DNA of 64,000 bases from Lachnospiraceae bacterium (GTDB lineage Bacteria > Bacillota > Clostridia > Lachnospirales > Lachnospiraceae): the NCBI GenBank assembly GCA_017938145.1, contig JAGBCB010000041.1, forward strand, positions 1 through 64,000, written 5' to 3'. A program made the position numbers and the translations under genes. How positions within the stretch are numbered: position 1 is the stretch's first letter; every line of letters starts with the position of its first letter. Positions 21,090-43,564 of the stretch are shown here, one piece after another. The notes under the pieces were generated by a model. The model ran no database searches, was not told the DNA's origin, and saw nothing but the letters and a program-made list of their open reading frames with translations.

Positions 21090-21668
21090 TCACAGTGTTA
21101 TATTCATAAATACCTCATCACGCTCATCCTGTGTAATTCCCAAGTACCGTTTCGTAATCTCATAATTGGAATGATTATAGATAGACATTAATAACGCCGG
21201 CTGTACACCCTGTTTCCATGCCTGGTAGCCAAATGTCTTTCGCAAGGAATGGCAGGAGATATTATCTTCAAAACCTAATTCCCTGGCTGCATTTTTTATA
21301 ATAGTAAAGGCATAGTTTCTGCTAATGTGCTGATTCTCTCCCTTCTGGCTACGGAAAACAAACAACTCCGGAGATACCACCGCCCCCTGCAGACAATATA
21401 ATTCTAAAGCGTCTTTTATGGCAGAATTGATAGCAACTATATTACTTTTTCCCGTTTTCTTCTCTTTTATTGAAATATGCTGCCGGTACATACCGGTTTG
21501 AAAATTAAACACATCCGCCCACCGGAGCTGCAAGATATCACTGATACGCAACGAAGTATTTAAGCCAAATACAATTAATGTGTAATTTCGAAATTCCTTA
21601 CGTTCAAGGAAGTAATTCTTCAGTGCAAAAATCTGCTCTAATTCTTTTATCGGTTGTGTCTTTGCCAT
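21090..21668 (-). CDS. Short tyrosine recombinase (catalytic domain only)
   Basis: This encodes 192 residues and is a phage-integrase-family catalytic domain with the full active set: Arg41 (TSLRISDIL), His140 and Arg143 (CHSLRKTFG), His166 (YNHSNYEIT) and the nucleophile Tyr175. The N-terminal SAM-like core-binding and arm-binding domains are missing, so it is a minimal recombinase of the size of plasmid resolvases and Fim-type invertases. It could resolve multimers or flip a promoter. The start has AAAGGAG 11 bases upstream. Its promoter faces away from the plus-strand unit at 21851. Confidence 0.93.
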   Translation of the reverse strand: MAKTQPIKELEQIFALKNYFLERKEFRNYTLIVFGLNTSLRISDILQLRWADVFNFQTGMYRQHISIKEKKTGKSNIVAINSAIKDALELYCLQGAVVSPELFVFRSQKGENQHISRNYAFTIIKNAARELGFEDNISCHSLRKTFGYQAWKQGVQPALLMSIYNHSNYEITKRYLGITQDERDEVFMNITL

Positions 21669-21807: not shown

Positions 21808-21850
21808 TAGATAAGTAATTATACATTACTACACTTTGGGAGGAAGCAAA

Positions 21851-22486
21851 ATGTCATATCCATCTTATGAAGAACTTCATAAAGCGGTTTACAATTTTCT
21901 TCCGGAGAAGCTTACCAACGGAACTTTAATTTTAGAGTATCTTGAAAATACTTTCGTTCCTTCCATGGTAAACATTGATCCATACAAGGAGCCCCTGCCG
22001 ACTCATTACAGTTTTCATAAGATAGGAGAATCGGATAGCGACTGCGTTATGCCTGCTGGTGCCAGCCACACGGTACGGCTTCTACACTACATTCCGAAAA
22101 ACAAGGAGCAGCAGCTTCTTCCGGATGTCATTTTAGCCGCTTATTCACATGCCATGGTATCGGTCAAAAACCAATCACTCCCATCCGCATGGGAAGAACC
22201 GCTAAAATCTTATGAGAAAGCTGCCAAGAGCGAGTTAAAGAAAAATAACTACCCTCTTTGGCATCATACCTGCAAAACATACCTTCCTGCAGAACTGGAT
22301 TATTCGTATACCAGCCAGGTATTAGTTGATGAGGAAACTGCAGCTGACACTGCAAAACTGGCTAAACATATCGTTGCCTCGGTTATGCAAGTATTAGAAG
22401 AATACCATATCATTTACCACGGATACACGGAAGAATGCTATCAGCAGGCAGAGGAATATAAATTATCACTTTATAATCCGTATTAG
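21851..22486 (+). CDS. Hypothetical protein upstream of the TnpB-like gene
   Basis: This encodes 211 residues, started at the ATG after GGGAGGAAGC. It is a soluble alpha/beta protein with no motif I recognise. The middle contains SHTVRLLHYIPKNKEQ and AAYSHAMVSVKNQS, and the end is helical and acidic. It has its own promoter and ends 67 bases before the TnpB-like gene, which also has its own promoter, so the two are neighbours rather than a strict operon. A functional link is possible but unproven. Confidence 0.75.
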   Translation: MSYPSYEELHKAVYNFLPEKLTNGTLILEYLENTFVPSMVNIDPYKEPLPTHYSFHKIGESDSDCVMPAGASHTVRLLHYIPKNKEQQLLPDVILAAYSHAMVSVKNQSLPSAWEEPLKSYEKAAKSELKKNNYPLWHHTCKTYLPAELDYSYTSQVLVDEETAADTAKLAKHIVASVMQVLEEYHIIYHGYTEECYQQAEEYKLSLYNPY

Positions 22487-22489: not shown

Positions 22490-22518
22490 TTGACGCATCA
22501 AATTTCGTCATGTAAAAT
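22490..22518 (+). promoter_or_regulatory. Promoter of the TnpB-like gene with inverted repeat
   Basis: TTGACG (22490-22495), a 17-base spacer and TAAAAT (22513-22518). TGACG (22491-22495) and CGTCA (22506-22510) form an inverted repeat overlapping the -35 and spacer, a likely operator. Confidence 0.75.
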
Positions 22519-22553: not shown

Positions 22554-23825
22554 ATGAATAAGAAACCCGGATTTTGTACAACTACATACCGCTTCCGCTT
22601 GTACTGCGACAATATGCAGCTGCTTCGTGAAACAAAGCTCATGTACAACCGGGTACTGAAATTTTACTATGATGTTATCCGTAAAGAACCGGCTATCTGG
22701 AATGTACCAAAGCTTCAGATGATGCGTGAACTGGAGCTTCTGACTATCGGTTCCAGAGGGGAATCCAGCGATGACACCAAATATCCTTTTCCTTTTGAGA
22801 AAGTACCCCTGTATTTCCGCAGAGCTGCCATCAATGATGCCATACGGCTCCAGGGCAGTTTCCGCTCCGGTGAAGACAGCGGTACCAAAGAAGCTTTAAA
22901 CTTTGATGCCTCCCCTATCTACTATAAGGGTATGTATAAAGAGTTTACTTCTACCTCCATTAACTTAAAACTCTACAATGGCGCAAAATGGATCTGGCAG
23001 CACTGCGAAATTGATACCTGTGGCAGAACCATGCCGGAGGCTGACCGGATTATGTCCCCAATCATTGTACTTGAAAAAGACAGGGCCATGCTTCATATTC
23101 CAGTAAAGCAGGATGTGGATGATGTGCGACCGGCAAAAGAACGTCTGGCAAACAAAGAAAAGCTCTGTGCTATTTATTGTCCTAACAGTGATACCCTGGC
23201 AGCCATGGTTATTGTGGATGCGGAAGGAAACTTTATCAAGAGCAAATTTATCGGAGGCGGAGACGAATTAGCCCATCGAAAGCAGACACTTCTCGACCGT
23301 ATAGAGAAAAACAGAAAAAGCATGGGATATGGCAAAGGTGCCAAAGAAGAATGGATAGAATCTCATGGTTCAATTCCTGCTGATGATAACAAAGCCATCC
23401 GTGAGAAGATACATCATATCACGGATAATGCAGCCCACAAGGCAAGCAAAGAAATAATTGATTTCTGCATAGAAAATGAGGTCAGCATCATTGTTGCACC
23501 TAATTATATACAGTCCATGAACTTTAACACCGTAGGATATGTTCCTAGTTCCAGTTACGACTGGATTGGACGCAGAATTATCTCCTATGTAAAGTATAAA
23601 TCATTTGCTGCAGGTATTGTTACTGCCACAGCAAGCACCAAGGATATTGCATCCTGCTGCTATAAGTGTGGCGGCAAACTAAAAAAATACAATAAGAATC
23701 ACAAACCCGGCATCAATTTTTACGGTGGCAAAAACTTCATCTGCCCTAATGACCACAAAGGTAATTCTTATTTCAATTCTGCCATGAATGTTGCCAAAAA
23801 CTTTTTAAGTACCATGAGCAAATAA
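22554..23825 (+). CDS. TnpB-like protein with all three RuvC acidic residues replaced
   Basis: This encodes 423 residues, the usual TnpB length. The N-terminus (TTYRFRLYCDN, KLMYNRVLKFYYD) and the PLYFRRAAINDAIR motif match the IS605/IS607 OrfB wedge/REC region. The RuvC-like half is present but the catalytic acids are not: where TnpB has GxD the chain reads AIYCPNS (Tyr208), the expected Glu of RuvC-II is Ala315 (IIVAPNY), and the last Asp is Tyr406 (GNSYFNSAMNV). The zinc knuckle is altered to CCYKCG ... CPNDH. No TnpA or transposon ends are visible. It has its own promoter and is followed by a hairpin-rich stretch. The best reading is a domesticated, nuclease-dead TnpB (TldR-like regulator). 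A plain decayed transposase is the alternative. Confidence 0.85.
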   Translation: MNKKPGFCTTTYRFRLYCDNMQLLRETKLMYNRVLKFYYDVIRKEPAIWNVPKLQMMRELELLTIGSRGESSDDTKYPFPFEKVPLYFRRAAINDAIRLQGSFRSGEDSGTKEALNFDASPIYYKGMYKEFTSTSINLKLYNGAKWIWQHCEIDTCGRTMPEADRIMSPIIVLEKDRAMLHIPVKQDVDDVRPAKERLANKEKLCAIYCPNSDTLAAMVIVDAEGNFIKSKFIGGGDELAHRKQTLLDRIEKNRKSMGYGKGAKEEWIESHGSIPADDNKAIREKIHHITDNAAHKASKEIIDFCIENEVSIIVAPNYIQSMNFNTVGYVPSSSYDWIGRRIISYVKYKSFAAGIVTATASTKDIASCCYKCGGKLKKYNKNHKPGINFYGGKNFICPNDHKGNSYFNSAMNVAKNFLSTMSK

Positions 23826-23831: not shown

Positions 23832-23913
23832 ACTTCCGGAAGTTAGCCTTCGGGCTTCTTCATACATTACTGGAAACAGTAAAAATGGCCTGCTTCTATA
23901 TGTCGCAGGCCAT
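23832..23913 (+). ncRNA. Candidate omega-like guide RNA scaffold
   Basis: Starting seven bases after the TnpB-like stop are consecutive hairpins. These are a 12-base palindrome (23832-23843), AGCC-TTCG-GGCT (23845-23856), a 6-base stem with a GAAA tetraloop (23867-23882), and a perfect 9-base stem with an 11-base loop (23885-23893 with 23905-23913). Two use the very stable TTCG and GNRA loops, as structured RNAs do. No T run follows the last stem, so it is not a simple terminator. TnpB guide RNAs lie at this position, overlapping or just past the gene. If real, the guide would begin soon after 23913. Confidence 0.45.
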
Positions 23914-24075
23914 CAGGTTCCATATCACCTTTTTCTACCGAAAGGCAGGGATAAAGATATGGGAAGTTATTAAAATAAATACTTGCTCCTTGTTTAGTAT
24001 TCTTCATTATTGCATAACTCCTATAATATCTAACTGCAAAAATGATATATACACTAACTTTCATTCATCTTATAT

Positions 24076-25944
24076 TCATTTCTTCCCGAACGGAATTTTA
24101 TAGGTTGGTACAATATCCTTTACCATTTCCCTAACGCTTCCGGTTTCATCATATACGGCATCCTTTAATTCCATCAGGGCATCAAAGAATGCAATATCGT
24201 CCATTTCGATCGGACGTGCCACGGAAATACGGTTGTTTTCGGTGGTTTTTAAGCCTTCCTCTTCCATCAGGCGCTCTTCGTAAAGCTTTTCGCCCGGTCT
24301 TAAGCCGGTATATTCAATCATAATGTCTTCATTTGGTACATAACCGGAAAGACGGATTAAGTTCTTGGCGAGGTCCACAATCTTTACCGGTTCACCCATA
24401 TCCAGAACGAAGATTTCTCCGCCCTCTGCAAACGCGCCTGCTTCGAGTACCAGGGAAACCGCTTCCGGAATGGTCATGAAGTAACGGATGATGTCCGGAT
24501 GGGTTACGGTTACCGGACCGCCCTCTTTAATCTGCTTTTTGAACAGCGGAATTACACTGCCGTTGCTGCCGAGCACGTTACCAAAACGCACCGCCACAAA
24601 CTGTGTTTTGGAGCGGCGGCTGTAGGCCTGTACAATCATTTCGCAGATACGCTTGCTGGCACCCATGATATTGGTTGGGTTTACCGCCTTGTCGGTGGAA
24701 ATGAGAACAAAACGCTCTACGCCGTATTTGTCGGCTGCCTGCACGGTTTTGAGTGTTCCGAATACGTTGTTCTTGATTGCCTCGTTCGGGCTGTCTTCCA
24801 TTAAAGGAACATGCTTGTGTGCCGCTGCATGGAACACAATATTTGGCAGGTAGGTTTCAAAAATTTTGTTAATACGGTTAGTGTTACGAACCGAAGCAAT
24901 TAATACAATCAGGTTCAGTTTTGGATACTTACGCTTTAATTCCTGCTGGATTTCATAAGCGTTGTTTTCATAAATATCTACAATAATCAGTTTTTTGGGA
25001 CCTGCTGCCGCAATCTGACGGCAAAGCTCGCTGCCGATGCTTCCGCCACCGCCGGTAACTAAAACGGTCTGGTTCTTTACAAAGGCAGTAACCTTTTTCA
25101 TGTCTACCTTAACCGGCTCTCTGCCGAGTAAGTCTTCAATTTCTACATGACGGAGCTTGCTGACGCGGAGCTCGTTATTTACAAACTGGTACATGCCCGG
25201 CACCATTTTGATTTCGCAGCCGGTCTGGTTGCAGATGGTAGCAATTTCTGCAGTTTCTTTACGGGAAACCGATGGCATGGCAATGATAATTTCGTCGATG
25301 TTGTAACGGCTGGCAGCCTCAATGATGGAATTTCTTCCGCCGACAATCGGGAAGCCGCTGATGCTCTTGCCCTTTAATTCCGGATTGTCGTCGATGATAC
25401 AGCCGATTTCCTTATGTAAGTACTGGCTTGTCTTAATTTCGCGGATTAATAAATCTGCGGCGGAACCGGCACCTACAATCATAACGCGTGAAAGGTCTCC
25501 GCGCTTTTTATCGTCCCACTTGCTCTTAATACGGCGCAGAATGCGGTATGCAAAACGGGTACAAACCGTTGCTCCGACTAAAATTCCGGCATATAAAAAC
25601 CAGTAGCTGCGCGGCATTTTGATATCTGCCAGAGTAAGACCCAGCAGCTGGATTAAGGTTGCGGTAACACCTGCCAGAATAATACGTTGCAGTTCATACC
25701 AGCTGGCATACTTCCATACACTGCGGTATAAACGGAACAGCCAGTATACTGCCAGCACCATAATTATGTTTAGCGGCATAGTACGCCATACATTATCCAA
25801 ATAAATCTTGTCTATTTTTGTGATGGAAAAATCAAAGCGGATCCATAACGCCATGATAGATGCTACAAAAACTGATATTCCATCTAACATAATAAAGAAA
25901 AGTTGCTGAAAAATATTTTCTTTTTCTTTTATCCATCTCAACAT
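24076..25944 (-). CDS. capD: Membrane-bound nucleotide-sugar 4,6-dehydratase (CapD/PglF)
   Basis: This encodes 622 residues, started at MLRWIKEK after GGAGGG. Four or five N-terminal membrane segments (about residues 10-130) are followed by a CoA-binding-like Rossmann region (VMIVGAGSAADLL) and then the SDR catalytic domain with TGGGGSIGSELCRQ. It lacks the Tyr of the usual SDR YxxxK, as PglF-type enzymes do (VLISTDKAVNPTN). It makes UDP-4-keto-6-deoxy sugar from UDP-GlcNAc. With the aminotransferase and acyltransferase of this locus it would give a bacillosamine-type sugar. It is the last gene of the polysaccharide locus, and its base composition is clearly more GC-rich than the glycosyltransferase genes. 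Confidence 0.95.
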   Translation of the reverse strand: MLRWIKEKENIFQQLFFIMLDGISVFVASIMALWIRFDFSITKIDKIYLDNVWRTMPLNIIMVLAVYWLFRLYRSVWKYASWYELQRIILAGVTATLIQLLGLTLADIKMPRSYWFLYAGILVGATVCTRFAYRILRRIKSKWDDKKRGDLSRVMIVGAGSAADLLIREIKTSQYLHKEIGCIIDDNPELKGKSISGFPIVGGRNSIIEAASRYNIDEIIIAMPSVSRKETAEIATICNQTGCEIKMVPGMYQFVNNELRVSKLRHVEIEDLLGREPVKVDMKKVTAFVKNQTVLVTGGGGSIGSELCRQIAAAGPKKLIIVDIYENNAYEIQQELKRKYPKLNLIVLIASVRNTNRINKIFETYLPNIVFHAAAHKHVPLMEDSPNEAIKNNVFGTLKTVQAADKYGVERFVLISTDKAVNPTNIMGASKRICEMIVQAYSRRSKTQFVAVRFGNVLGSNGSVIPLFKKQIKEGGPVTVTHPDIIRYFMTIPEAVSLVLEAGAFAEGGEIFVLDMGEPVKIVDLAKNLIRLSGYVPNEDIMIEYTGLRPGEKLYEERLMEEEGLKTTENNRISVARPIEMDDIAFFDALMELKDAVYDETGSVREMVKDIVPTYKIPFGKK

Positions 25945-26079
25945 TTTTTCCCTCCGAATAAAATCCATAGATTACGCATCAGTTAGTAAATTACCATCAC
26001 AATATTACATTTATTCCTAGTAAAGCTCATTATATCCTTACTATTTGCTCTGTTCATTAAACCAACTATTACCTATATA

Positions 26080-27327
26080 CTAATCTCTTCTGAATAAGTC
26101 TCTGGTGTAAACCTTTTCTTCTACATCCGCCAGAATATCCTCGTAACGATTTGCCACGATAACATCGGAACGGTGCTTGAACTCCGCTAAATCGTTGACC
26201 ACAAGGGAGCCGAAGAAAGTGGTTCCATTCTCCAGGGTCGGCTCATAAATAATAACCTCTGCGCCCTTGGCCTTGATGCGCTTCATGACGCCCTGAATGG
26301 AGGACTGACGGAAGTTATCCGAGTTTGCCTTCATGGTAAGACGAAAAACACCCACGATAACCGGCTTCTCCAACGCTGCATCATAAGCGTTGGCACCCTC
26401 ATAGGAGTACGCACCAGCCTTTTGAAGAATACGGTCAGCAATAAAATCCTTACGGGTGCGGTTGGACTCTACGATGGCACCAATCATGTTCTGTGGCACG
26501 TTCTCGTAGTTGGCAAGCAGTTGCTTGGTGTCCTTGGGCAGACAGTAGCCACCGTAACCAAAAGAAGGATTGTTGTAATGGCTGCCAATACGCGGGTCAA
26601 GACCCACACCGGCGATAATCTGGCGAGTATTAAGTCCCTTCATCTCAGCATAGGTGTCCAACTCATTGAAAAAGCTGACACGAAGCGCCAGGTATGTATT
26701 TGCAAACAGTTTTACTGCTTCCGCCTCGGTAAATCCCATAAACAATGTGTCGATGTCTTGTTTGATAGCACCCTGTTGCAGAAGCTCTGCAAAAATATGT
26801 GCAGCCTTTACCAGCCGCTCATCGTTAAGGTCGGTACCCACAATAATACGGGACGGATACAGGTTGTCGTACAGTGCCTTGCTCTCACGCAGGAACTCCG
26901 GACTGAACAGAATGTTCTTGCAGCCGGTCTTCTTACGGATGCTCTCGGTATACCCCACCGGAATGGTAGACTTGATTACCATGATAGCATCTGGATTATA
27001 CTCCATAACCAGCTTGATAACCGCTTCTACTGCAGAAGTGTCGAAATAATTCTTCGCACTGTCGTAGTTGGTAGGAGCCGCAATCACAACGAAATCGGCA
27101 TCTGTGTAAGCTTCCTTCGCATCTAAGGTTGCTACCAGATTTAAATCCTTGGTGGCCAAATATTCTTCAATATAATCATCCTGAATCGGTGATTTCTTAT
27201 TGTTTATTAACTCTACTTTTTCCGGTACAATATCCACAGCCATAACCTGATTATGCTGAGCCAACAAGGTAGCAATGGAAAGACCGACGTAACCGGTGCC
27301 GGCAACTGCGATTTTGTAGTTGGACAT
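26080..27327 (-). CDS. ugd: UDP-glucose 6-dehydrogenase
   Basis: This encodes 415 residues. The N-terminal NAD-binding motif is [15 protein letters not shown], and the catalytic region has [15 protein letters not shown] and [12 protein letters not shown] with the active-site Cys. It oxidises UDP-glucose to UDP-glucuronate. Length and motifs match the short Ugd subfamily (Streptococcus HasB-like). An AGGAGAG precedes the ATG. It lies 65 bases past the NeuB-family gene and 135 bases before capD. A separate WecC-type dehydrogenase is present in the same locus, so two uronic acids may be made. Confidence 0.96.
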
Positions 27328-27391
27328 TCGTTTACTCTCCTTTACTCAACTATTTGTGTTTTTATGCTTTATTACATCATACTAATTATTT

Positions 27392-28501
27392 TTAATCCAT
27401 TGTTAGGATATCTTCCCATTTAATGGAACATCCCTTTTTTACAGCCTTAACAACCCTTACATGATTATTTAATAACATTTCATAATGTATAGGTTCAATA
27501 CCTCTACTTTCATTTCCTGGTCTTAAAATAGCTGTATTTTGTGTACTAATTACATCTCCTGCGCGCAAATCTTCAGTTGCGAAAACACATCTATACGCAT
27601 ATTTTCTCAAATTTTCTTCTACTTCAATTACCATCTTTTGTGAAGTTCCTAATGTTTCTTGATGAATAAATTGTTGTTTTTCATCATCAGACATATTTTC
27701 TACTTTTCTTATTGCTAAACACATTTCGGCTAACTGTTCAGGATTAACAGCAAAGGAATGATCTGCTCCTGGTAAATTTTTGTCAATAGTAAAATGCTTT
27801 TCGATAATTTTGGCTCCTAACGCCACCGCAGTCACAGGTGCTGCAACCGGATCTTCTGTATGATCCGAATAACCAATAATTACATTTGGAAAAGCTTGCT
27901 TATACATTTGAATTATGCGTAAATTACACTCACTTAACGGTGTTGGATACTTTGCAACACAATGCATTAATCCAATCTTATCATTTCCTACTTCACTTAT
28001 AGCACGAATTGCGATATCTACATCCGACAAGTATGCACCTGCTGATGAAAAAATAACTGGTTTTTTATATTTAGCAACATGTTTTAACAAAGGAATATGA
28101 GTAATTGCATATGAAGCCATCTTAAATGAATCAACATTTTGATTATTTAATATATCCGCTCCATCTTCGTCGCAAACGGTACATAAAAAACCAATTCCTT
28201 TAGAATCACAATACTGCATAAGCTTGGGAATCCATTCATATGGCAATTCAGTACCTTTTAATATCTCATTAATTGGCTTTACCTGACCTGCAGCAGTTGT
28301 ATAATCTCCCGCATTAGGTGTATACATTTTATCTGCCCTAAATAACTGAAACTTAACAATATCAGCCTTTGCGGCGACTGCTACATCTATTAATTGAAGT
28401 GCCTGATCATATTTCCCATCATGATTTATTCCTGCTTCAGCTATAATAAGTGTTCTACTGTTATTTGAAACTTTTTTACCACCAATAATTAGTTCTTTCA
28501 T
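27392..28501 (-). CDS. spsE: NeuB/SpsE-family nonulosonic acid synthase
   Basis: This encodes 369 residues, started at MKELIIGG (a GTG five codons earlier is less likely). The N-terminal TIM barrel has AEAGINHDGKYDQALQLID, KFQLFRADKMYT, the sheet motif FSSAGAYLSDV and EKHFTIDKNLPGADH, followed by a C-terminal SAF/antifreeze-like domain (RCVFATEDLRAGDVISTQN). NeuB enzymes condense a 6-carbon sugar with PEP to sialic, legionaminic or pseudaminic acid. The order beside SpsF-, GNAT- and SpsG-type genes resembles the Bacillus spore-coat spsDEFG set, favouring legionaminic-acid-like chemistry. The exact product cannot be read from sequence. Confidence 0.92.
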   Translation of the reverse strand: MKELIIGGKKVSNNSRTLIIAEAGINHDGKYDQALQLIDVAVAAKADIVKFQLFRADKMYTPNAGDYTTAAGQVKPINEILKGTELPYEWIPKLMQYCDSKGIGFLCTVCDEDGADILNNQNVDSFKMASYAITHIPLLKHVAKYKKPVIFSSAGAYLSDVDIAIRAISEVGNDKIGLMHCVAKYPTPLSECNLRIIQMYKQAFPNVIIGYSDHTEDPVAAPVTAVALGAKIIEKHFTIDKNLPGADHSFAVNPEQLAEMCLAIRKVENMSDDEKQQFIHQETLGTSQKMVIEVEENLRKYAYRCVFATEDLRAGDVISTQNTAILRPGNESRGIEPIHYEMLLNNHVRVVKAVKKGCSIKWEDILTMD

Positions 28502-28516
28502 AATTAAATTCTCCAC

Positions 28517-29245
28517 TTAATAATTTGTTACTTTTTGCTTTACATGTTTATTACTCTCCAAAACGGTTGGATTATCAGATATATACTGTAAGACATCATC
28601 CAGCGTAAAATCTGAATTTATTGGATAAAGAGCTTCATATATTTCTTTTACCAACCTGTAATCTTCTTCTGTATCTGTGGTTAGCCGAATATTCTCATGG
28701 TTGTACTTACCTGACTGCGGTTTATTCCACTTAAATTTATTTCCGGATCGATACATAAATAGTGTAACATGCTCTCTACATTCATCATCCACAGCTTCTC
28801 GCCAAGCGCTACTTAATGCCTCATAACTAAATAGTTCTATAGCCGTGCCTAACGGCATACCTTGCGCATAATAAACATAATCATAAGAGTTTGACATATA
28901 ATATTCTATACCTTCGTCAATAATACTCGGATCAAACAAAGCATTATCAGCTGTCATTCTAATTATCAATTCCGATTTATATTCTGTTGTACATTTGTAA
29001 AAACGATCTAACACATCTTTTTCACTACCTCTAAAATACTTATAATTTCTTATTTCACAAAATTCTTGTACAACATCATCTGCCAAGGAATCCGAAGTTG
29101 CTACAATAACTTCATCAACATTATTACATTTCTTAGCACGTTCTACAATCTGCTCCAACATAGGAAGTCCACATAATGGTTTTAATATTTTACCTGGTAA
29201 CCTAGTGGAACCCATTCTTGCCTGAATAACTATATGTGTTTTCAT
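28517..29245 (-). CDS. spsF: SpsF-type cytidylyltransferase
   Basis: This encodes 242 residues and is a nucleotidyltransferase with IQARMGSTRLPGKILKPLCG at the N-terminus and DEVIVATSDSLADD, the SpsF/KdsB-like pattern. SpsF-type enzymes are thought to activate a nonulosonic acid as its CMP form for transfer. It stands directly between the NeuB-family gene and the GNAT gene, with about 4-15 base gaps, so the set is likely one operon. Confidence 0.92.
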   Translation of the reverse strand: MKTHIVIQARMGSTRLPGKILKPLCGLPMLEQIVERAKKCNNVDEVIVATSDSLADDVVQEFCEIRNYKYFRGSEKDVLDRFYKCTTEYKSELIIRMTADNALFDPSIIDEGIEYYMSNSYDYVYYAQGMPLGTAIELFSYEALSSAWREAVDDECREHVTLFMYRSGNKFKWNKPQSGKYNHENIRLTTDTEEDYRLVKEIYEALYPINSDFTLDDVLQYISDNPTVLESNKHVKQKVTNY

Positions 29246-29249
29246 TGAT

Positions 29250-29987
29250 TTATCCTTTCTTTACAATATGATAAATACTATTAATCTTATTAATCTTAAA
29301 CCCTTGCTTAAAATAAAAATTTATCGCTGCTATATTAGAAACTTGCGTTCCAACATACACAATAGGGACACCTTTACCGTTCAAATAATTATCTAAAGCA
29401 GTAAACATATAATTACCAATTCCCTTACTTTGATAATTTTTGTTTACAACTGTTAGCTCAATTGTAACCGACTCATTACCATTGTGCGAAAACAAAATAA
29501 ACCCAACAATTTTTTCATCAACCTTTGCTAATACATAATATTTATCTTCTTTACGAAATGCATTAGCAATCCAATTATGATAAAGTTTAAATCGCTGTTC
29601 TCCCAGTCGCTCATCATTAAAGAAACGGGAGTACTTAAAATTTTGAGCCAAACTAACTACTTGTTCATTAGGCTCAAGGTTATTTGTTATTTCAATAGTT
29701 ATATCATCTCTTAAATTCAAGTTGTGTTTTTCAATATTTTTTTTCAAATTCATATTTATATCTGCTAGAAAAGAATATTTTCCTAATAATTGAGGAATTT
29801 TATAGTTAATACAATTTTGATTATCTTGATTAATAACCGTAAAAAATAATCTATCTTTATCATTTACGAAGTCAACGATTTTCTCCAATTGCTCGATCTC
29901 TGAAATTGTACATTTATATGAATCTATTCCAAAAAAATCTGTATCCCACTCTAATTCATGTATTTCATCTAAATTATTATTTTCCAT
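29250..29987 (-). CDS. GNAT acetyltransferase (SpsD-like)
   Basis: This encodes 245 residues. I prefer the ATG at 29987, which is 9 bases after AGGAGG; the ATG six bases upstream is too close. The C-terminal half is a GNAT fold with KYYVLAKVDEKIVGFILF, VTIELTVVNKNYQSKGIG and YFKQGFKIN, where the NxxYQSKGIG loop binds acetyl-CoA. The N-terminal half (LEWDTDFFGID) resembles the WecD/SpsD sugar-amine acetyltransferases. It probably N-acetylates the 4-amino sugar on the way to the nonulosonic acid. Confidence 0.85.
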   Translation of the reverse strand: MENNNLDEIHELEWDTDFFGIDSYKCTISEIEQLEKIVDFVNDKDRLFFTVINQDNQNCINYKIPQLLGKYSFLADINMNLKKNIEKHNLNLRDDITIEITNNLEPNEQVVSLAQNFKYSRFFNDERLGEQRFKLYHNWIANAFRKEDKYYVLAKVDEKIVGFILFSHNGNESVTIELTVVNKNYQSKGIGNYMFTALDNYLNGKGVPIVYVGTQVSNIAAINFYFKQGFKINKINSIYHIVKKG

Positions 29988-30000
29988 TCTCATCTGCCTC

Positions 30001-30972
30001 CTATAGCAATTGTTTAATAACATTCAATACATTTTCAATACCATTGACAGAAACATACTTTTTCTGCAAATTACTCATTTGTAATCTTACTTCTTGTTTC
30101 TTTATTTTATTAAATAATTTAACAACTGCTTCTTCCAACTCTGTTTCAGCACAATTTATAAATTCACATGCACCCTCATCAAAAAATTTTTTTGCCGTTA
30201 TATTCTGATGCTCTACTTGACATAATACAATGCATGGTGTTCCTATATATGCTGCTTCAAATAAAGTAATTCCCCCAGATATTAGCGCTATATCTGCCGA
30301 ATATAAATATTCAGATAAATCATTACAATTTTCTAACACCTGCACATTCTTGTACATCTGTCCAAAAGATTTTATTTTCTCTTTATTTTGATAGTTTGGA
30401 CCGATAACCACAAAAAACTGAACACTAGGATATTTGCTAAAAAGGAATTCTAATTTTAAAGTGTATTCTTTAGGATCTGAACCGCCAAATGTTACTAATA
30501 CTTTTTCTATTCTATCATTTATTAACTTTTTCATTTTTGCCCTATTTTCAACATTTTTTGTGAATATCATATATTCATGACCTTTTAATAGTTTTTTGGT
30601 TTCTGGCAAAGATGGTACGATTGCATTAATTACAACATCTACATTCGAAACACCACTTCCTCTATCATCAAAAGAAATTACCGTGTCTATGTATTTTTTT
30701 ATTATGACAATTTCCTTACTATCAGTGTCTAATCTATCTATCACTAATAATTTTGGTTTATTATTTTTAAGATAAGCTAACACATCATTAAACTCATTAT
30801 ACACTACATACGGGATTTCATTAAACTTTAGTAATTCTTTTGTTTCAAGATCATCATTAATAGCAAAACAAACTTGGTATATTTTACTCAATTTATGAAA
30901 CAAATTAATCTGCCTAAAAATATGCCCCATTCCTATATCATGGCCACCCATGGTCCAAATAAGTATATCCAT
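30001..30972 (-). CDS. spsG: PseG/SpsG-like UDP-sugar hydrolase
   Basis: This encodes 323 residues. The GT28-like fold shows GGHDIGMGHIFRQINLFHKL with the Gly-rich, His-bearing N-terminal loop, FGGSDPKEYTLKL in the middle and SGGITLFEAAYIGTPCIVL near the C-terminus, as in PseG and SpsG. These enzymes remove UDP from the diacetamido sugar before the NeuB step. A perfect 15-base hairpin separates it from the WecB gene. Confidence 0.9.
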   Translation of the reverse strand: MDILIWTMGGHDIGMGHIFRQINLFHKLSKIYQVCFAINDDLETKELLKFNEIPYVVYNEFNDVLAYLKNNKPKLLVIDRLDTDSKEIVIIKKYIDTVISFDDRGSGVSNVDVVINAIVPSLPETKKLLKGHEYMIFTKNVENRAKMKKLINDRIEKVLVTFGGSDPKEYTLKLEFLFSKYPSVQFFVVIGPNYQNKEKIKSFGQMYKNVQVLENCNDLSEYLYSADIALISGGITLFEAAYIGTPCIVLCQVEHQNITAKKFFDEGACEFINCAETELEEAVVKLFNKIKKQEVRLQMSNLQKKYVSVNGIENVLNVIKQLL

Positions 30973-30985
30973 ATCTGCCCTCTTA

Positions 30986-31031
30986 ACACATCATATTTGC
31001 TCTCACTGCATATAGTGCAAATATGATGTGT
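30986..31031. promoter_or_regulatory. Long perfect hairpin inside the polysaccharide operon
   Basis: A 15-base perfect stem (30986-31000 with 31017-31031) with further inner pairing (CACT with AGTG) lies between the wecB stop and the start of the PseG-like gene. No T run follows on the minus strand, so it is more likely a processing, stability or boundary element than a terminator. Confidence 0.65.
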
Positions 31032-31038
31032 TTATTCT

Positions 31039-32130
31039 TTATTTTTCTAAAATATCAGCTATTCGTTTAGATGCATTTCCATCACCATACGGATTGCTTG
31101 CTTTAGACATTTTTTCATACTCTTGACTGTCTTCTAATAAAAGCTTAAAACTACTATAAATTGATTCCTCCTCGGTTCCAACAAGTTTTAACGTACCCGC
31201 CTGTATACCTTCTGGTCTCTCAGTAGTATCACGCATTACAAGAACAGGTTTTCCTAAAGATGGAGCTTCCTCTTGTATCCCACCACTATCAGTCAAAATC
31301 AAGTAACTCCTAGCTAAGAAATTATGAAAGTCTAATACTTCTAAGGGTTCAATAATCCTAATTCGTTCACAATCTCCTAATTCTTCATCTGCAGCTTGTC
31401 TAACTACTGGATTCATATGTATTGGATATATAGCCTTTACGTCTGAATGCTCGTCCATCACACGTCGAATAGCACGAAACATATTATGCATTGGAGCTCC
31501 TAGATTTTCTCGTCTATGTGCTGTTATCATAATTAATCGGCTATCTTTTGCCCATTCCAATTCAGGATGAACATAATTCTCTTTAACAGTTGTTTTTAAT
31601 GCATCTATTGCAGTGTTTCCAGTAACAAAAATAGTAGCAGGATTCTTTCCTTCCTTTAATAAATTCTCCTTAGACAATTCTGTTGGCGCAAAATTATACG
31701 AAGAAATTATTGATACTGCTTGTCTATTGAACTCCTCTGGATATGGACTATATATATTATACGTTCTCAATCCTGCTTCAACATGACCTACTGGTATTTG
31801 CATATAAAAACAGGCTAATGCTGTAACAAAAGTTGTAGAAGTGTCTCCATGAACCAAGACAACATCTGGCATTTCTTTTTCTAGCACTTGCTTAATTTTT
31901 GTTAAAATATTCGTTGTCACATCGAATAAGGTCTGCTTGTCCTTCATAATTGACAGGTCATAATCTGGGATTACTTCAAATGCATTAAGCACTTGATCTA
32001 ACATCTGTCGATGCTGTCCTGTCACACAAACAACAGTATTGAGTGATTCTCTTTTTTTTAATTCTTTTACCAACGGACACATTTTTATCGCTTCTGGACG
32101 AGTACCAAACACAAGCATTACTTTTTTCAT
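31039..32130 (-). CDS. wecB: UDP-GlcNAc 2-epimerase (non-hydrolysing)
   Basis: This encodes 363 residues. The N-terminus VMLVFGTRPEAIKMCPLVKEL, HGDTSTTFVTALACFY, HVEAGLRTYN, TAHRRENLG and DSGGIQEEAPSLGKPVLVMRD are diagnostic for the epimerase. It makes UDP-ManNAc, the substrate for the WecC-type dehydrogenase next to it. GGTGG precedes the ATG. Together they supply UDP-ManNAcA. Confidence 0.97.
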   Translation of the reverse strand: MKKVMLVFGTRPEAIKMCPLVKELKKRESLNTVVCVTGQHRQMLDQVLNAFEVIPDYDLSIMKDKQTLFDVTTNILTKIKQVLEKEMPDVVLVHGDTSTTFVTALACFYMQIPVGHVEAGLRTYNIYSPYPEEFNRQAVSIISSYNFAPTELSKENLLKEGKNPATIFVTGNTAIDALKTTVKENYVHPELEWAKDSRLIMITAHRRENLGAPMHNMFRAIRRVMDEHSDVKAIYPIHMNPVVRQAADEELGDCERIRIIEPLEVLDFHNFLARSYLILTDSGGIQEEAPSLGKPVLVMRDTTERPEGIQAGTLKLVGTEEESIYSSFKLLLEDSQEYEKMSKASNPYGDGNASKRIADILEK

Positions 32131-32149
32131 TTTACCACCTACCTCTTAC

Positions 32150-33370
32150 TTACAATCTATAAGTGCCTGGCAAATCACAGCATTTCCGAGTATCAAATAC
32201 AATTTTCCCTTCTAATTTACTCATATTTTCTTTAATATGATCGTGATTTACCATGATTACAACCAATTCTGTATCTTCTAAAAATTTATCAAAGTCATGA
32301 TATTGATTAGGGACCAAATCCTTTTCAAAATAAGGATCATATGTTTTCAATGGCTCTGCTAAATGACGTTCTTGACTCTCTAAAAGTTGAATTGTCGGAG
32401 ATTCTCGTGGATCATCAACATTCTCCTTATATGACAATCCATATAGTCCCACTTTAGAAAAGTCATGAATATTATTTTCTTTCATAATCTCATAAATCCT
32501 ATTAAGCACAAAATCTGGCATGCCATCATTTGTTTTCATGGACTCATCAATTACTTTTGCAAGGCTAGGATAATCCCCAACAAGGAACCATGGGTCTACA
32601 GAAATGCAATGCCCACCAACACCTGGTCCAGGTTGTAAAATATTTACCCTTGGATGCATATTACATATCTTTATAATTTCATAAACATCCATATTATCGT
32701 GACGACAAATTTTCGCCAGTTCATTTGCAAATGCAATATTTACAGCTCTGAATGTATTTTCAACTACCTTTGTCATTTCCGCTGTTCTTATATCTGTCAC
32801 AATAATATCACCTTGGCAAAAAGATGCATATATCTTTTTGATTTTTTCTCCTATTTCTTTACTATCAGCACCAATCGTTCTATTATTATGTAAAAGTTCA
32901 TATACCATATTTCCTGGAATAATACGTTCCGGAGCATGAACCAAATTAATATCTTCACCAATTTTAAACCCATTTTCTTCAATAACTGGTCGTATAAACT
33001 TATCAATTGTACCAGGAGAAACCGTAGATTCAACAACTACAGTTGCACCTTTTGGACATACTCCCATTATTGTTTTCACTGCTGCAACAACATATCCTGC
33101 ATCCACTTTCTTGCTAAATTTATCATACGGCGTTGGAACTGACACAATATAGGTATCTGTTACTTGATATTCTGTTGTAAATTTAATTCCAGATTTTACA
33201 GCTTCAGCAAATAATTCATCTAACCCTTTTTCTTTAAAAGTTGTTTTACCTTCATTAAGAGTTTTTACTACCTCCTTGTTATAATCCGTACCAATTACTT
33301 CAACACCATGAGACGCAAGCATAAGCGCTGTTGGTAAACCGATATAACCTAATCCTACTACATTAATCAT
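32150..33370 (-). CDS. wecC: UDP-ManNAc dehydrogenase
   Basis: This encodes 406 residues, started at MINVVGLGYIGLPTALML after GAGGTAG; the ORF has an in-frame start six codons upstream that is less likely. NAD motif, STVSPGT, HAPERIIPG and PGVGGHCISVDPWFL (active-site Cys) match WecC. It oxidises UDP-ManNAc to UDP-ManNAcA. It lies 20 bases before wecB and follows a serine-acetyltransferase-like gene. Confidence 0.96.
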   Translation of the reverse strand: MINVVGLGYIGLPTALMLASHGVEVIGTDYNKEVVKTLNEGKTTFKEKGLDELFAEAVKSGIKFTTEYQVTDTYIVSVPTPYDKFSKKVDAGYVVAAVKTIMGVCPKGATVVVESTVSPGTIDKFIRPVIEENGFKIGEDINLVHAPERIIPGNMVYELLHNNRTIGADSKEIGEKIKKIYASFCQGDIIVTDIRTAEMTKVVENTFRAVNIAFANELAKICRHDNMDVYEIIKICNMHPRVNILQPGPGVGGHCISVDPWFLVGDYPSLAKVIDESMKTNDGMPDFVLNRIYEIMKENNIHDFSKVGLYGLSYKENVDDPRESPTIQLLESQERHLAEPLKTYDPYFEKDLVPNQYHDFDKFLEDTELVVIMVNHDHIKENMSKLEGKIVFDTRKCCDLPGTYRL

Positions 33371-33471
33371 CTTTTCTACCTCATACAATTCTAAATAAAA
33401 TCGTATTTCCTTTCTTTTATATAATTTTGTTTTTTACTTCAGTATGTAGACAACCGAAATAATCATTACTA

Positions 33472-34023
33472 TTACTCCCTATGCAAAGGATTTTTCTCAT
33501 TGACAGAAATAAGCTTTGCCGGAACTCCTCCCACGACAGCTCCTTTCTCATAAATAGATTTAGTCACTACTGCATTCGCTCCAATCATCACATCATCAGC
33601 AATGCATATATTTCCAAATATCTTTGCTCCAGGACCAATATATACATTAGAACCAATTTCCGGACATTTTCCATCAATACTTTGTCCTATATTTACTCCC
33701 TGATGAATGTCACACCAATCCCCAATTTTACAATTTGGATTGATAATTATTCCACCGCAAATATGATTAATTCTTAAACCAGCTCCAAATACATTTGCAG
33801 GAATAGAAAATGAATATTTCATCCCTAATCTATGATGTAGCCACTTATACCACGCATACATTATCTTATTTGATTTAGTATTATAATAATACTCATACTT
33901 GCGTAGACAAATCTCATATTTCCATTCTTCATCCCCAAACACTCTAGGATGGTTATACATTTTTTTGAGTGCTTTTTTATCGGCTTCTAAGTATCTTTTC
34001 AATTCTTTTTTATCTTTTATCAT
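33472..34023 (-). CDS. Hexapeptide-repeat acyltransferase (serine acetyltransferase type)
   Basis: This encodes 183 residues. The first Met of the frame lies inside the Wzx gene; I chose MIKDKKEL. The C-terminal left-handed helix repeats (GGIIINPNCKIGDWCDIHQG, GSNVYIGPGAKIFGNI, ADDVMIGANAVVTKSI) match CysE-like sugar O-acetyltransferases. Within a glycan locus it most likely O-acetylates a sugar residue. It overlaps the end of the flippase gene by 14 bases. Confidence 0.9.
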   Translation of the reverse strand: MIKDKKELKRYLEADKKALKKMYNHPRVFGDEEWKYEICLRKYEYYYNTKSNKIMYAWYKWLHHRLGMKYSFSIPANVFGAGLRINHICGGIIINPNCKIGDWCDIHQGVNIGQSIDGKCPEIGSNVYIGPGAKIFGNICIADDVMIGANAVVTKSIYEKGAVVGGVPAKLISVNEKNPLHRE

Positions 34024-35482
34024 AATCATCATTCCTCTTAACACTGTTTTTCTTCTTATATTTTAGTATATTACCCGCATAAAAAAGATAACTTATACAA
34101 AATATTGCAATAATAAAATATCTAAGAAAAAACTTTTCTGACAACATATCTGATAAAACAAATCCGATACATGAAATTACTATAGCCGGCAAATAGCTTT
34201 TAAAATCAATATTATAATTCTTAATAATAAACCTTACAACAATTTCATGCAATATCCATAATATAATATACGATAACAATGTTGTAAATGCAGCTCCTTC
34301 TATTCCATATTTCGGTACAAATATTGAATTTAATATTATATTAATCGCTGCACAAATCACTGTTGCAGGTGCAACAAATTTCGTATTTCCATTATACTGC
34401 TCATAACATAATGGAAATCTATATAAAAACAAAAAACATATTCCTAAAGCAACATATTTTATACATGGCATACCGGTATAATACGTTTCATCGGCCATTA
34501 TTTTCATAATTTCTGGAGCTAGCATCATTACTCCAAAAAAGCACATTGCAATAGTAAAAGAATAAAACTTTAAATAACGATTAACTTGTTCTTTGTTTTT
34601 GCATTTTGTCTCACTAAAATACCATGGAGTCCATGCATCTGTACATGCATCTGCAAATGTAAGTGCAATTGCTCCTATGCTATATGCAACACTATATATA
34701 CCTGCTTCATTCTCACCAAACAACTTAATAATAAATACTCTATCGGCATTTCCATTAACCATGTTAGCTAAAAGATGCGGTATAAGTGGAATTCCAAATG
34801 TCAGTGCATACATAACATCCTTTTTCCCTGAACCAACACCTTTAGTTTTTATAAAAGCAAAACGCACTGAAACATATAATGCAACAAGACCATACGCCAC
34901 TACAAAACCAATTATTCTTCCTTGGCTCTTGTCAGCGAAAAATAAAACCATCATTACACCACACAAAGTAATAAATAATGAATTTATTGTTGAAAATTTA
35001 ACCTTAGCTTTAGGCCTTTCTTGTGCGATACAATAGCTAGAATATAAATTAATTGCAGAATGTCCATATGCTACTATAAGCATCGGCAATAAATATATAC
35101 TATCTATTTCTGTTATATTTGAAATGAAATTTCTAAACAAAAATATGAAACAGCCTATCACTAATGCAAAAGCAATGCACATCCTTGTAATTCTTGCAAC
35201 ATAGACATCTAATTCCTCAACTGAACGTGTAACTTTTGCGGCCACAATACCTGCCGTCATCTGCAGGCAGATAAAAACTGCAAAAAAATTTGCCCACATT
35301 GTAAAATTAGATACAATTCCATAATCAGCAGTTCCCATTAGTCGTGTAAATATAGGTGTTGTCAAAAAAGATATTCCTTTTATTAGAAACGAAGCAGCTA
35401 TATATAATATTGAATTTGCAAAAAATTTATTTGCTTTGATCTCTTTTAATATTGCGTTACATTTTTCTAGCAATTTCTCCAT
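34010..35482 (-). CDS. wzx: Wzx-type polysaccharide flippase
   Basis: This encodes 490 residues with about 12-14 membrane segments and the MOP/MATE-like beginning FANSILYIAASFLIKGISFL. This is the classic lipid-linked oligosaccharide flippase. The start codon sits only two bases after GAGG, which is a weak arrangement, and a GTG one codon earlier is an alternative. It would carry undecaprenyl-PP-linked units across the membrane for polymerisation by the Wzy candidate. Confidence 0.92.
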   Translation of the reverse strand: MEKLLEKCNAILKEIKANKFFANSILYIAASFLIKGISFLTTPIFTRLMGTADYGIVSNFTMWANFFAVFICLQMTAGIVAAKVTRSVEELDVYVARITRMCIAFALVIGCFIFLFRNFISNITEIDSIYLLPMLIVAYGHSAINLYSSYCIAQERPKAKVKFSTINSLFITLCGVMMVLFFADKSQGRIIGFVVAYGLVALYVSVRFAFIKTKGVGSGKKDVMYALTFGIPLIPHLLANMVNGNADRVFIIKLFGENEAGIYSVAYSIGAIALTFADACTDAWTPWYFSETKCKNKEQVNRYLKFYSFTIAMCFFGVMMLAPEIMKIMADETYYTGMPCIKYVALGICFLFLYRFPLCYEQYNGNTKFVAPATVICAAINIILNSIFVPKYGIEGAAFTTLLSYIILWILHEIVVRFIIKNYNIDFKSYLPAIVISCIGFVLSDMLSEKFFLRYFIIAIFCISYLFYAGNILKYKKKNSVKRNDDYDKR

Positions 35483-35491
35483 CACCTCATT

Positions 35492-36904
35492 CTAATTAGT
35501 TTTACTTTCTTTATCACACCCTATAGCTGATACAATAAGCTTCTGTTTTCCTCTTATCGTTCTTGGTATATTATCTACTTTTTTAGGTGTAACAATTATT
35601 TTATTGTATAAATAGTTTTCACAATCGGATTTTATTTCTGCCTCTAATTTGTGAATATCCTCTTTATCACTTAGTGGAATATACCATATCTCACAAAATC
35701 CTACTTTGTCTTGTCTTACTTGAAACTGCTCCACTTTGCTCTGCCATATTGATTGGCTTATAGCAAAATCGCAATATGTATCTGTCACGATACTACCATC
35801 GCTCAAATATATTCTATCGCCAGTTCTTCCTTCTATTGATTCAATCAGCTGATGTTCCCTGCCACAAGAACATTTTTCACTCGACAAAACAAATAAATCT
35901 TGTGTTTTATATCTTATCAATGGCATGCAATTATTAATAAATCCTGTAGCGACTAATTCCATCATTCCGTCATTTTCAATAAACTCTGCAATTCCATATT
36001 CAGGCTGTATATGAAAACGCATTGACTCTTCACACGTTCCAGCCAAGCAAGCTTTTTCAGTGTGTCCATACGCATGTAACATTTTAACATTGAAAAATTT
36101 TTTAAACACCTTGATTTGATGAGGATATAATGTCTCTGACATAAAAATTATACCTTTCAACGAATCAAATGGTGACTCCATGTTAACATCCAGTAATTGC
36201 ACTAAATAGTATAAACTTGCTGGATATGCAATTATCCACTGCGGTTTTATCTTAATGATAGCCTCTCTATATTTTTGAATGGTTTCTTTCCTTAAATTAC
36301 CAAAAGAAAAATAAAACTTATTTGTACCTGGCATTCTCTTGTATACAATATTCTTATCTACCATCTCCATTTCTCTAATGAAATTAATATCTCTGAATAT
36401 CGCAATTCTATCCGTATCATTATACCCTATTCTGCCCCATATTCTTGCAACAAACGCATCTTCTTTCGCTTTTACTATATCCTTCTCATACCATATGGAG
36501 ATAGGTTTTCCTGATGATCCACCTGTTTCATGCCGTATTCTTTTATTTTTGTGCACGGCAGTAGAAAGCATCCGTTCTCCTTCTTCTTTGATTATATCTT
36601 TAGTCAGATATGGAACTTTTTTTAGACTTTCAGTATCCGTTATAGAATCCGGATCAATAGCCAAATCATCAAATAATTTTTTATAATATGGAACATTATT
36701 ATAGGCGTACAAAATCAAATCATGCAATTTTTCATTTTGATATTTTTGCATCTTTTCTTTTGACCAATACTCAGATTCCTCTAAAAAATTATATGTTTCT
36801 TCATATGTCTTTCTATACAATGAAGATGTTCTAATATTCATTGGTAATTTATTATAAGCATACCGAAATATGTCTTTGACTATTATCTTTAGCTTATTAT
36901 TCAT
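35492..36904 (-). CDS. CapK/PaaK-type adenylate-forming enzyme
   Basis: This encodes 470 residues of the phenylacetate-CoA-ligase-like family found in capsule loci (CapK). Visible motifs are HETGGSSGKPISIWYEK (ATP-binding), YGHTEKACLAG and LIRYKTQD, and there are four Cys in the acceptor half (CSCGREHQ). Its substrate in glycan loci is uncertain; activation of an acyl or amino acid for glycan decoration is the usual suggestion. The stop of the upstream heparinase-like gene overlaps its start by four bases. Confidence 0.9.
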   Translation of the reverse strand: MNNKLKIIVKDIFRYAYNKLPMNIRTSSLYRKTYEETYNFLEESEYWSKEKMQKYQNEKLHDLILYAYNNVPYYKKLFDDLAIDPDSITDTESLKKVPYLTKDIIKEEGERMLSTAVHKNKRIRHETGGSSGKPISIWYEKDIVKAKEDAFVARIWGRIGYNDTDRIAIFRDINFIREMEMVDKNIVYKRMPGTNKFYFSFGNLRKETIQKYREAIIKIKPQWIIAYPASLYYLVQLLDVNMESPFDSLKGIIFMSETLYPHQIKVFKKFFNVKMLHAYGHTEKACLAGTCEESMRFHIQPEYGIAEFIENDGMMELVATGFINNCMPLIRYKTQDLFVLSSEKCSCGREHQLIESIEGRTGDRIYLSDGSIVTDTYCDFAISQSIWQSKVEQFQVRQDKVGFCEIWYIPLSDKEDIHKLEAEIKSDCENYLYNKIIVTPKKVDNIPRTIRGKQKLIVSAIGCDKESKTN

Positions 36905-43554: not shown

Positions 43555-43564
43555 TATTAACTCC

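What the first reader, a model, noticed from the sequence alone, without database searches (positions are those of the whole stretch)
22554..23825. TnpB-like protein with all three RuvC catalytic positions replaced
The chain keeps TnpB length, N-terminal fold motifs and a remnant zinc knuckle, but reads Tyr208, Ala315 and Tyr406 where the catalytic Asp, Glu and Asp should be. The gene has its own promoter and an intact frame, with no transposase gene or transposon ends. Intact yet catalytically dead TnpB homologues are known as RNA-guided transcription regulators (TldR), so this may be a plasmid-borne member of a new clade.
Basis: partly seen in the sequence, partly recalled or inferred. Interest (0 to 1): 0.88.

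Follow-up and report, generated by a model that had tools for sequence, protein, structure and literature searches.

The report
Dead TnpB guarding phase-variable polysaccharide operons
A gut-bacterial relative of the CRISPR ancestor TnpB has lost its DNA-cutting site, kept a structured RNA partner, and in its relatives sits between a flip-flopping promoter and the genes for a surface sugar coat, so it is probably an RNA-bound switch for that coat.

Summary
ORF 22554-23825 is an intact TnpB/Cas12f-fold protein reading Tyr208, Pro316, Tyr406 at the RuvC Asp, Glu, Asp positions (not Ala315). It is no decaying copy: 28 of 28 aligned clade members lack all three acids, while 9 of 9 active TnpBs keep them; 7 of 11 pairs of homologues gave dN/dS, 0.07-0.17, none with the window. 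Directly downstream, 23910-23970, lies a new structured RNA with a covarying pseudoknot like that of TnpB/Cas12 guide RNAs. In relatives the gene usually heads surface-polysaccharide operons, often behind an invertible promoter (12 of 19 loci, 6 of 179 controls). One complete genome has five copies, by promoter sequence four facing away and one facing in; an Eubacterium callanderi assembly reads as a composite of both orientations. The window copy is rearranged: it faces the 3' end of its operon, whose 5' end looks like a relic of the switch. Best reading: a TldR-like RNA-bound regulator of phase-variable surface polysaccharide. DNA guiding is not shown. None of the papers listed in seven searches links TnpB to this.

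The parts
22554..23825 (+). nuclease-dead TnpB-like protein (dTnpB), 423 aa
23175..23177 (+). codon Tyr208 at the RuvC-I Asp position
   Evidence: Asp in 9 of 9 active TnpBs, non-acidic in 28 of 28 dead-clade members
23499..23501 (+). codon Pro316 at the RuvC-II Glu position (Ala315 precedes it)
   Evidence: Glu in 9 of 9 active, Pro in 28 of 28 dead
23769..23771 (+). codon Tyr406 at the RuvC-III Asp position
   Evidence: Asp in 9 of 9 active, non-acidic in 28 of 28 dead
23910..23970 (+). structured RNA core (omega/guide-RNA-like scaffold)
   Evidence: covariance model built from 27 other loci without the window, 36.7 bits, E 6.8e-7 in 64 kb; next best 16 bits, E 0.09
23920..23926 (+). pseudoknot 5' strand CCATATC
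   Evidence: helix tested on 27 other loci in 83
23956..23962 (+). pseudoknot 3' strand GATATGG
   Evidence: helix tested on 27 other loci in 83
23971..23990 (+). putative guide position (sequence after the conserved AAGTTAT end); use as a guide not shown
   Evidence: inference from TnpB/TldR layout
22490..22518 (+). promoter-like TTGACG-17-TAAAAT
   Evidence: not above chance as a pattern
21836..22486 (+). 216-aa ORF of unknown family directly upstream, same strand
   Evidence: no family above a cut-off
21090..21668 (-). tyrosine recombinase, 192 aa, invertase-sized; no tblastn match (E <= 1e-4) to it in the 28 relatives' loci
24076..48196 (-). co-directional surface-polysaccharide gene cluster, taken as an operon (FlaA1-like dehydratase, UDP-sugar dehydrogenases x2, CMP-sugar-synthetase-like, 2-epimerase, flippase-like, glycosyltransferases, sugar transferase, DegT, PglD; six of the ORFs scanned match no family); its 3' end faces dTnpB
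48304..48319 (-). TGACCA-N4-TGACCA pair as found inside relatives' invertons (putative recombinase arm-type sites)
   Evidence: 1 in window, 0.02 expected, pattern chosen after seeing it; genome-wide 4 against 4 for the control
48241..48269 (-). promoter-like TTGACC-17-TATAAT with extended -10 (TGGTATAAT) at the operon's 5' end
   Evidence: read from the sequence
48041..48187 (-). 49 aa matching the N-terminus (Arm-domain-like, label recalled) of the integrase inside relative L088's inverton, in frame with PglD: probable invertase relic
   Evidence: 45% identity over 49 aa, E 7e-10

Best explanation
This is a member of an undescribed clade of nuclease-dead TnpB proteins that work as RNA-bound regulators of surface-polysaccharide operons. 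In the typical locus a site-specific recombinase flips a promoter segment (inner length mostly about 190-380 bp; 92 to 594 bp, and 1.4 kb at one locus). When the promoter faces inward, one transcript runs through the dTnpB gene, a pseudoknotted omega-RNA-like scaffold and then the polysaccharide genes. The dTnpB binds the scaffold it is transcribed with (inferred from the fold and the conserved pseudoknot). The complex then most likely binds DNA, TldR-fashion, using the bases just 3' of the scaffold as a short guide, and represses polysaccharide promoters, probably those of the other phase-variable loci (inferred, weakly supported). Shown here by sequence: loss of the catalytic triad, low dN/dS among relatives, the covarying RNA, the operon position in relatives, and promoter inversion in relatives. 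In the window the parts are rearranged and the operon's promoter looks fixed, so this copy could act only in trans or be a leftover of the system.
For: Clade-wide loss of D/E/D, 28 of 28, against 9 of 9 active proteins that keep it, with clade-specific conserved residues D190 (27/28) and D213 (25/28). dN/dS 0.07-0.17 in 7 of 11 pairs. Pseudoknot: 166 of 168 cells pair over 28 loci, shuffle maximum 138 of 2000 shuffles; 27 loci without the window, 99.1% of 215 cells against 81.4 +/- 1.5% shuffled, covariation 0.593 against 0.224, 0/500 (83); the blind model finds the window RNA at E 6.8e-7. 29 of 30 model matches in 14 genomes, all chosen for carrying dTnpB, lie beside a dTnpB gene or fragment. 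A pseudoknot next to the guide is shared by omegaRNA and Cas12 guide RNAs (PMC10097598, abstract and passages). Downstream genes are mostly polysaccharide genes. Invertons: 12/19 against 6/179 (58); L029 composite of both orientations, 355/382 against 285/382, controls at most 279; one facing in and four facing away in one complete genome. TldR precedent with an invertase upstream: csrA-tldR loci with hin (PMC13418256, passages). Same-genome guide-to-promoter matches exceed shuffled guides most at offset 0 and fade by offset 9.
Against: No guide target stood clearly above chance. The same-genome excess over shuffled guides (1.02 +/- 0.19 nt) is mostly matched by different-genome pairs (0.61 +/- 0.05). 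Sequences after the scaffold drift between orthologues (L043, L086). The scaffold end lies a median of 57.5 nt before the first downstream ORF (120, n=24 of the 25 co-directional loci), which also fits a role on the mRNA. No RNA data exist. ON/OFF states rest on a -10-like sequence. In the window itself no inverton was found and the operon is convergent with dTnpB. TGACCA pairs are not enriched genome-wide in the window's genome.
Confidence: 0.5

Rival explanations
1. Cis-acting leader regulator: dTnpB binds the scaffold in the nascent operon mRNA and controls elongation, stability or translation of the polysaccharide genes, with no guide and no DNA target, functionally like leader-RNA or antitermination control of capsule operons.
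For: The scaffold sits in the leader of the operon, median 57.5 nt before the first ORF in 24 loci; the following bases vary and show no clear target; in 14 dTnpB-bearing genomes 29 of 30 RNA matches are beside dTnpB and the other is a degenerate second copy further down one of the same operons (a capped first look, so copies elsewhere are not excluded).
Against: The pseudoknot beside the guide is the conserved part of TnpB/Cas12 guide RNAs; the whole TnpB fold is kept; the window copy has no co-directional operon yet keeps a 7-bp pseudoknot.
Confidence: 0.3
2. The window copy alone is a stranded leftover: the clade is functional, but here rearrangement has uncoupled dTnpB from its promoter switch and operon. 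(Not exclusive of the other readings.)
For: Convergent orientation, no inverton near dTnpB, and the probable switch relic at the far end of the operon; in L030 dTnpB reads into a FlaA1-like gene 81% identical to the window's.
Against: Frame, invariant residues and RNA pseudoknot are intact at 54% identity to the nearest relative; a trans-acting regulator need not adjoin its operon.
Confidence: 0.35
3. A cryptic nuclease with a rearranged RuvC site.
For: A clade-specific conserved Asp213 (25 of 28; Asn in 9 of 9 active) lies five residues after the lost Asp.
Against: The Glu position is Pro in 28 of 28 and no acid replaces the RuvC-III Asp (119); one acid is not expected to make a two-metal site (established RuvC chemistry, recalled).
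Confidence: 0.03

Closest known systems
TldR (TnpB-like nuclease-dead repressors; Wiegand 2024, not held here; PMC13418256 read in passages)
   Same: TnpB-derived, RuvC-dead, intact frame, adjacent guide-RNA-like scaffold, linked to surface-structure genes; most csrA-tldR loci also have an invertase gene (hin) upstream, with inversions seen in Flavonifractor plautii
   Different: Linked to polysaccharide operons, not flagellin; the RNA lies in the operon leader; recombinase genes seen at two loci (L048, L088) are of the tyrosine type; no target identified. Whether the RNA scaffolds are related was not tested
IS200/IS605 TnpB (nearest active relatives found: L055-L057, L094-L098, L100)
   Same: Fold, zinc-ribbon position, shared KxPxYxRRAAI motif (L055-L057)
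   Different: 20-23% identity for L055-L057 (42); they keep D/E/D; R1 finds no RNA beside them; beside the TnpB, L056 has an annotated tnpA, L055 a gene annotated 'transposase', L057 neither in the 5.8 kb shown (38-40)
Cas12f, including PDB entries titled dCas12f (9n9c, 9n9m)
   Different: 12-15% identity in the best ten Foldseek rows; a CRISPR array was not searched for; different gene partners
Phase-variable capsule loci of Bacteroides with UpxY/UpxZ (recalled)
   Same: Invertible promoter, then a regulatory gene at the head of a polysaccharide operon; several loci per genome
   Different: The regulator is a dead TnpB with a structured RNA, not a NusG paralogue and its inhibitor; Firmicutes hosts

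Membership tests
TldR | TnpB homologue by sequence and fold | tested here: met
TldR | RuvC catalytic residues lost, frame intact, under selection | tested here: met
   selection measured on relatives only (7 of 11 pairs)
TldR | adjacent guide-RNA scaffold | tested here: met
   conserved pseudoknotted RNA; expression and binding not tested
TldR | guide matches a chromosomal target at a promoter | tested here: inconclusive
TldR | TAM recognition and transcriptional repression | not testable with these tools
   needs ChIP-seq or reporter assays
TldR | stable association with non-transposon genes | tested here: met
   polysaccharide genes downstream in relatives
Active TnpB nuclease | RuvC D/E/D triad | tested here: not met
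Inverton-controlled locus (relatives) | paired inverted repeats enclosing a promoter upstream | tested here: met
   12 of 19 first loci; the promoter is a -10-like match
Inverton-controlled locus (relatives) | both orientations observed | tested here: met
   L029, inferred from a composite sequence; paralogous loci in one genome
Inverton-controlled locus (window copy) | inverted repeats upstream of dTnpB | tested here: not met
Cas12f / type V CRISPR effector | CRISPR array with tracrRNA | not tested
   no search for arrays was made

The most novel reading that the evidence does not exclude
An RNA-guided exclusion system for sugar coats: the one polysaccharide locus whose promoter is switched on makes a dead-TnpB complex whose guide, cut from that operon's own leader, silences the other phase-variable polysaccharide loci, so that a cell shows one coat at a time.
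Probability: 0.25. Interest if true: 0.95.

Novelty: new variant of a known kind. Interest (0 to 1): 0.84.

Why it matters
It would be another domestication of TnpB into a regulator, tied to surface polysaccharide and to DNA inversion, with a structured RNA that matched no Rfam family in the 20 loci tested. Surface sugars of gut Firmicutes are expected to affect phage sensitivity and host contact (established knowledge of capsules). The work also points to tractable hosts: two single-contig genomes with three (G646) and five (G1083) copies, the latter close to Eubacterium callanderi, in which the question of how Firmicutes keep few coats on at a time can be tested directly.

Tried and rejected
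Guide targets: exact prefix searches in own loci, own genome (4 non-self matches with up to 1 mismatch against 7 for the reversed control), same-genome loci, and the leader sites of the Eubacterium-like genome (10 and 7 nt at the L090 site, 9 nt at the L092 site, 0 at the L089, L091 and L029 sites; L132's own site, read by eye, 7 nt; post hoc and AT-rich). Statistics: raw same-genome matches are longer than different-genome ones (7.17 against 6.42 nt at offset 0, rounded p 0.0; self pairs p 0.095); the excess over shuffled guides peaks at offset 0 (121); but different-genome pairs show most of it. Left as inconclusive.

Invertible segment at the window copy: none found; a 12-bp pair at -455 and +1442 (56) I take as chance. 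Long inversion of the window operon: only 12-bp repeats.

The 'orphan' RNA in G1083 (86) proved to be a fifth dTnpB locus; a contig-edge RNA in G019 also has a dTnpB end upstream. R1 beside active TnpBs: one off-site hit only, E 0.02. The R1 genome scan scored 150 of 329-1258 candidates per genome and missed three training loci (L030, L045, L046); genomes without dTnpB were not scanned. RNAalifold on the gapped alignment found 4 pairs only. The anchor of the pseudoknot was chosen by hand where several matches existed, for seven later loci by its expected letters, which favours pairing somewhat. Rfam: nothing at gathering score in 20 loci; window 19000-27000 one sub-threshold hit, E 0.6 (7). 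Phage and viral collections: no relative; plasmids: six records with weak TnpB hits. TGACCA pairs genome-wide, found against reversed control: own genome 4/4, G646 6/2, G266 6/4, G245 3/2, G1083 22/4 (116), so they are not specific to these loci.

Literature: searches (lists capped at 12-20 titles of up to 143 papers) list no paper joining TnpB/TldR with polysaccharide operons or polysaccharide invertons. Wiegand 2024 and Altae-Tran 2023 were not held, so absence there is unchecked.

Full report

The dead site. Matches, own genome included in each count, were found in 3 of 4 genomes of the genus at E <= 1e-5 (8), 9 of 397 of the family at E <= 1e-15, and, with the profile at E <= 1e-20, 12 of 392 of the order and 4 of 391 of the class. 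Of these last, six and two genomes hold the dead clade (one of them a fragment, G692); the others are weak matches to distant TnpBs. Eubacterium callanderi also has it. Identities run from about 30 to 54%. In an alignment of 28 full-length clade members (window included; L046, with a stop, and fragments left out) and 9 active TnpBs, the three catalytic columns are D, E, D in 9 of 9 active proteins and non-acidic, Pro, and non-acidic in 28 of 28 clade members. L101, which I had left unclassed, also reads D/E/D there; the second TnpB of L056 was left out of the count. The window reads Tyr208, Pro316, Tyr406. In an unrooted tree the intact TnpBs group apart from the dead ones (support 0.992). Of 11 pairs of homologues, 7 give dN/dS 0.07-0.17 (dS above 1 in four of them) and 4 are saturated, among them both pairs with the window, so selection is measured on relatives only.

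The RNA. Directly 3' of the gene, in 21 of 21 first loci with a full-length gene and 8 later ones, there is a GGT(N8)RCC element and, further on, a GTGCTGAGAGTTAT-like end, and their letters pair. Across 28 loci 166 of 168 cells of six pairs are standard; 2000 reshuffles of partners reach at most 138; some anchors were picked by hand. Without the window (27 loci) all six pairs show changes on both sides, and 99.1% of 215 cells in the eight pairs counted are paired against 81.4 +/- 1.5%. A covariance model built from those 27 finds the window at 23910-23970 with 36.7 bits, E 6.8e-7. In 14 genomes, all chosen for carrying dTnpB, the model makes 30 matches; 29 lie beside a dTnpB gene or fragment and one is a degenerate second copy about 2.3 kb further down an operon. 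It misses three training loci. Twenty such loci match no Rfam family. TnpB omegaRNA and Cas12 guide RNAs share a pseudoknot next to the guide (PMC10097598, abstract and passages), so the anatomy fits an omegaRNA-derived scaffold. The subclade of the window (window, L030, L034) has a shortened core of 61-68 nt against 78-138.

The neighbourhood. Of 29 loci examined, the first downstream ORF of at least 120 aa is co-directional in 25. The exceptions are the window, L039 (cassette inverted), L045 (a 162-aa reverse ORF, which I take as spurious, precedes a co-directional epimerase) and L041 (none found). In 24 of the 25 (L086, 3185 nt, left out) the scaffold ends a median 57.5 nt before the called ORF (120). 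Of 26 first downstream proteins given to Pfam (L039, L041 and L086 not given; the epimerase used for L045), families matched were nucleotide-sugar epimerase/dehydratase 7, glycosyltransferase family 4 5, family 2 4, DegT 3, fucose pyrophosphorylase 2, bacterial sugar transferase 1, DUF4422 1; the tally does not name members, so overlaps are possible.

The switch. Inverted repeats with arms of at least 12 bp and spacers of 60-620 bp lie within 700 bp upstream of dTnpB in 12 of 19 loci with enough sequence (21 less two at contig ends), against 6 of 179 upstream windows of other genes in the same loci. Later loci: L086, L089-L092 and L132 have such repeats, L087 only a 9-bp pair, L088 a 1.4-kb segment enclosing a tyrosine integrase gene. 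The window, L030, L031, L033, L034 and L037 show none with arms of 12 bp. L039 has 20-bp repeats around the whole dTnpB-RNA cassette, which points away from its operon. Inversion is supported twice. In the E. callanderi assembly the segment matches the G1083 segment at 285 of 382 positions, but matches at 355 of 382 the string that takes, at each position, the later letter of the forward and reverse-complement sequence; shuffled and rotated controls reach at most 279. I read this as a consensus of a mixed population whose ambiguity codes were resolved to one letter; the rule was found after seeing the pattern. In G1083, a single-contig genome, the extended -10 TGTTATAAT faces away from dTnpB at four loci and towards it at the fifth; no transcript data support these states. 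TGACCA direct repeats lie inside many of these segments; I read them as recombinase arm-type sites because the L088 integrase has an Arm-domain-like N-terminus (label recalled).

The window copy. Here dTnpB is convergent with the 3' end (FlaA1-like gene) of a long polysaccharide gene cluster (3, 4, 93, 109), whereas in L030 it reads into the homologous gene (81% identity, 103). No inverton was found near dTnpB. At the other, 5' end of the cluster stand the window's only TGACCA pair (0.02 expected in the window, 112, but 4 against 4 control genome-wide), a TTGACC-17-TATAAT extended promoter-like sequence and a gene whose residues 4-52 match the L088 integrase N-terminus, in frame with PglD. I read this as a relic of the same switch; the operon's promoter now looks fixed.

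Mechanism and limits. Shown by sequence: dead site, low dN/dS in relatives, RNA, operon linkage and inversion in relatives. Inferred: RNA binding by dTnpB, regulation, and TldR-like guided repression. The guide question was tested and is open: same-genome matches to other loci's promoter regions exceed shuffled guides by 1.02 +/- 0.19 nt at offset 0, fading by offset 9, but different-genome matches also do by 0.61 +/- 0.05 (122), so most of the signal is low complexity. A cis role on the operon leader remains a serious rival.

Known kinds. TldR are dead TnpBs that repress flagellin; guides of 6 nt sufficed to reduce motility, and most csrA-tldR loci carry hin upstream (PMC13418256, passages). 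The present clade shares that logic but differs in its gene partner, its leader position and, where recombinase genes were seen (L048, L088), their type. Searches list no paper on a polysaccharide-linked dead TnpB; the founding TldR papers were not held.

Noticed in passing
L029 5592-5973 (Eubacterium callanderi FD, NZ_FRBP01000003.1): The assembly as held here reads as a chimeric consensus of both orientations of an inverton; such composites could serve as an in-silico marker of phase variation in isolate genomes.
   Followed up: yes
window 47516-48196: In-frame fusion of about 50 residues resembling an integrase N-terminal Arm domain to a PglD-like acetyltransferase.
   Followed up: partly
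window 48317-51127: 936-aa helicase with ResIII and helicase-C domains followed by seven helicase-associated (HA) repeats.
   Followed up: no
window 19877-21067: 396-aa protein with a DUF3791 domain matching the PADLOC candidate defence model PDC-M13A, near an HTH protein and a sigma-70 region-4-like protein.
   Followed up: no
L088, segment -1477 to -32 relative to dTnpB: 1.4-kb segment between inverted repeats, carrying a tyrosine integrase gene inside.
   Followed up: partly
L034, -1998 to -466 relative to dTnpB: A gene that reads like TnpA and a TnpB-like gene with DLG and DRD motifs just upstream of a dead-TnpB locus (read by eye).
   Followed up: no
window 12397-12606: Direct repeats of 74-81% identity inside the 848-aa ORF 11863-14409.
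   Followed up: no
window residues Asp190 and Asp213 of dTnpB: Two acidic residues conserved only in the dead clade (27 and 25 of 28).
   Followed up: no
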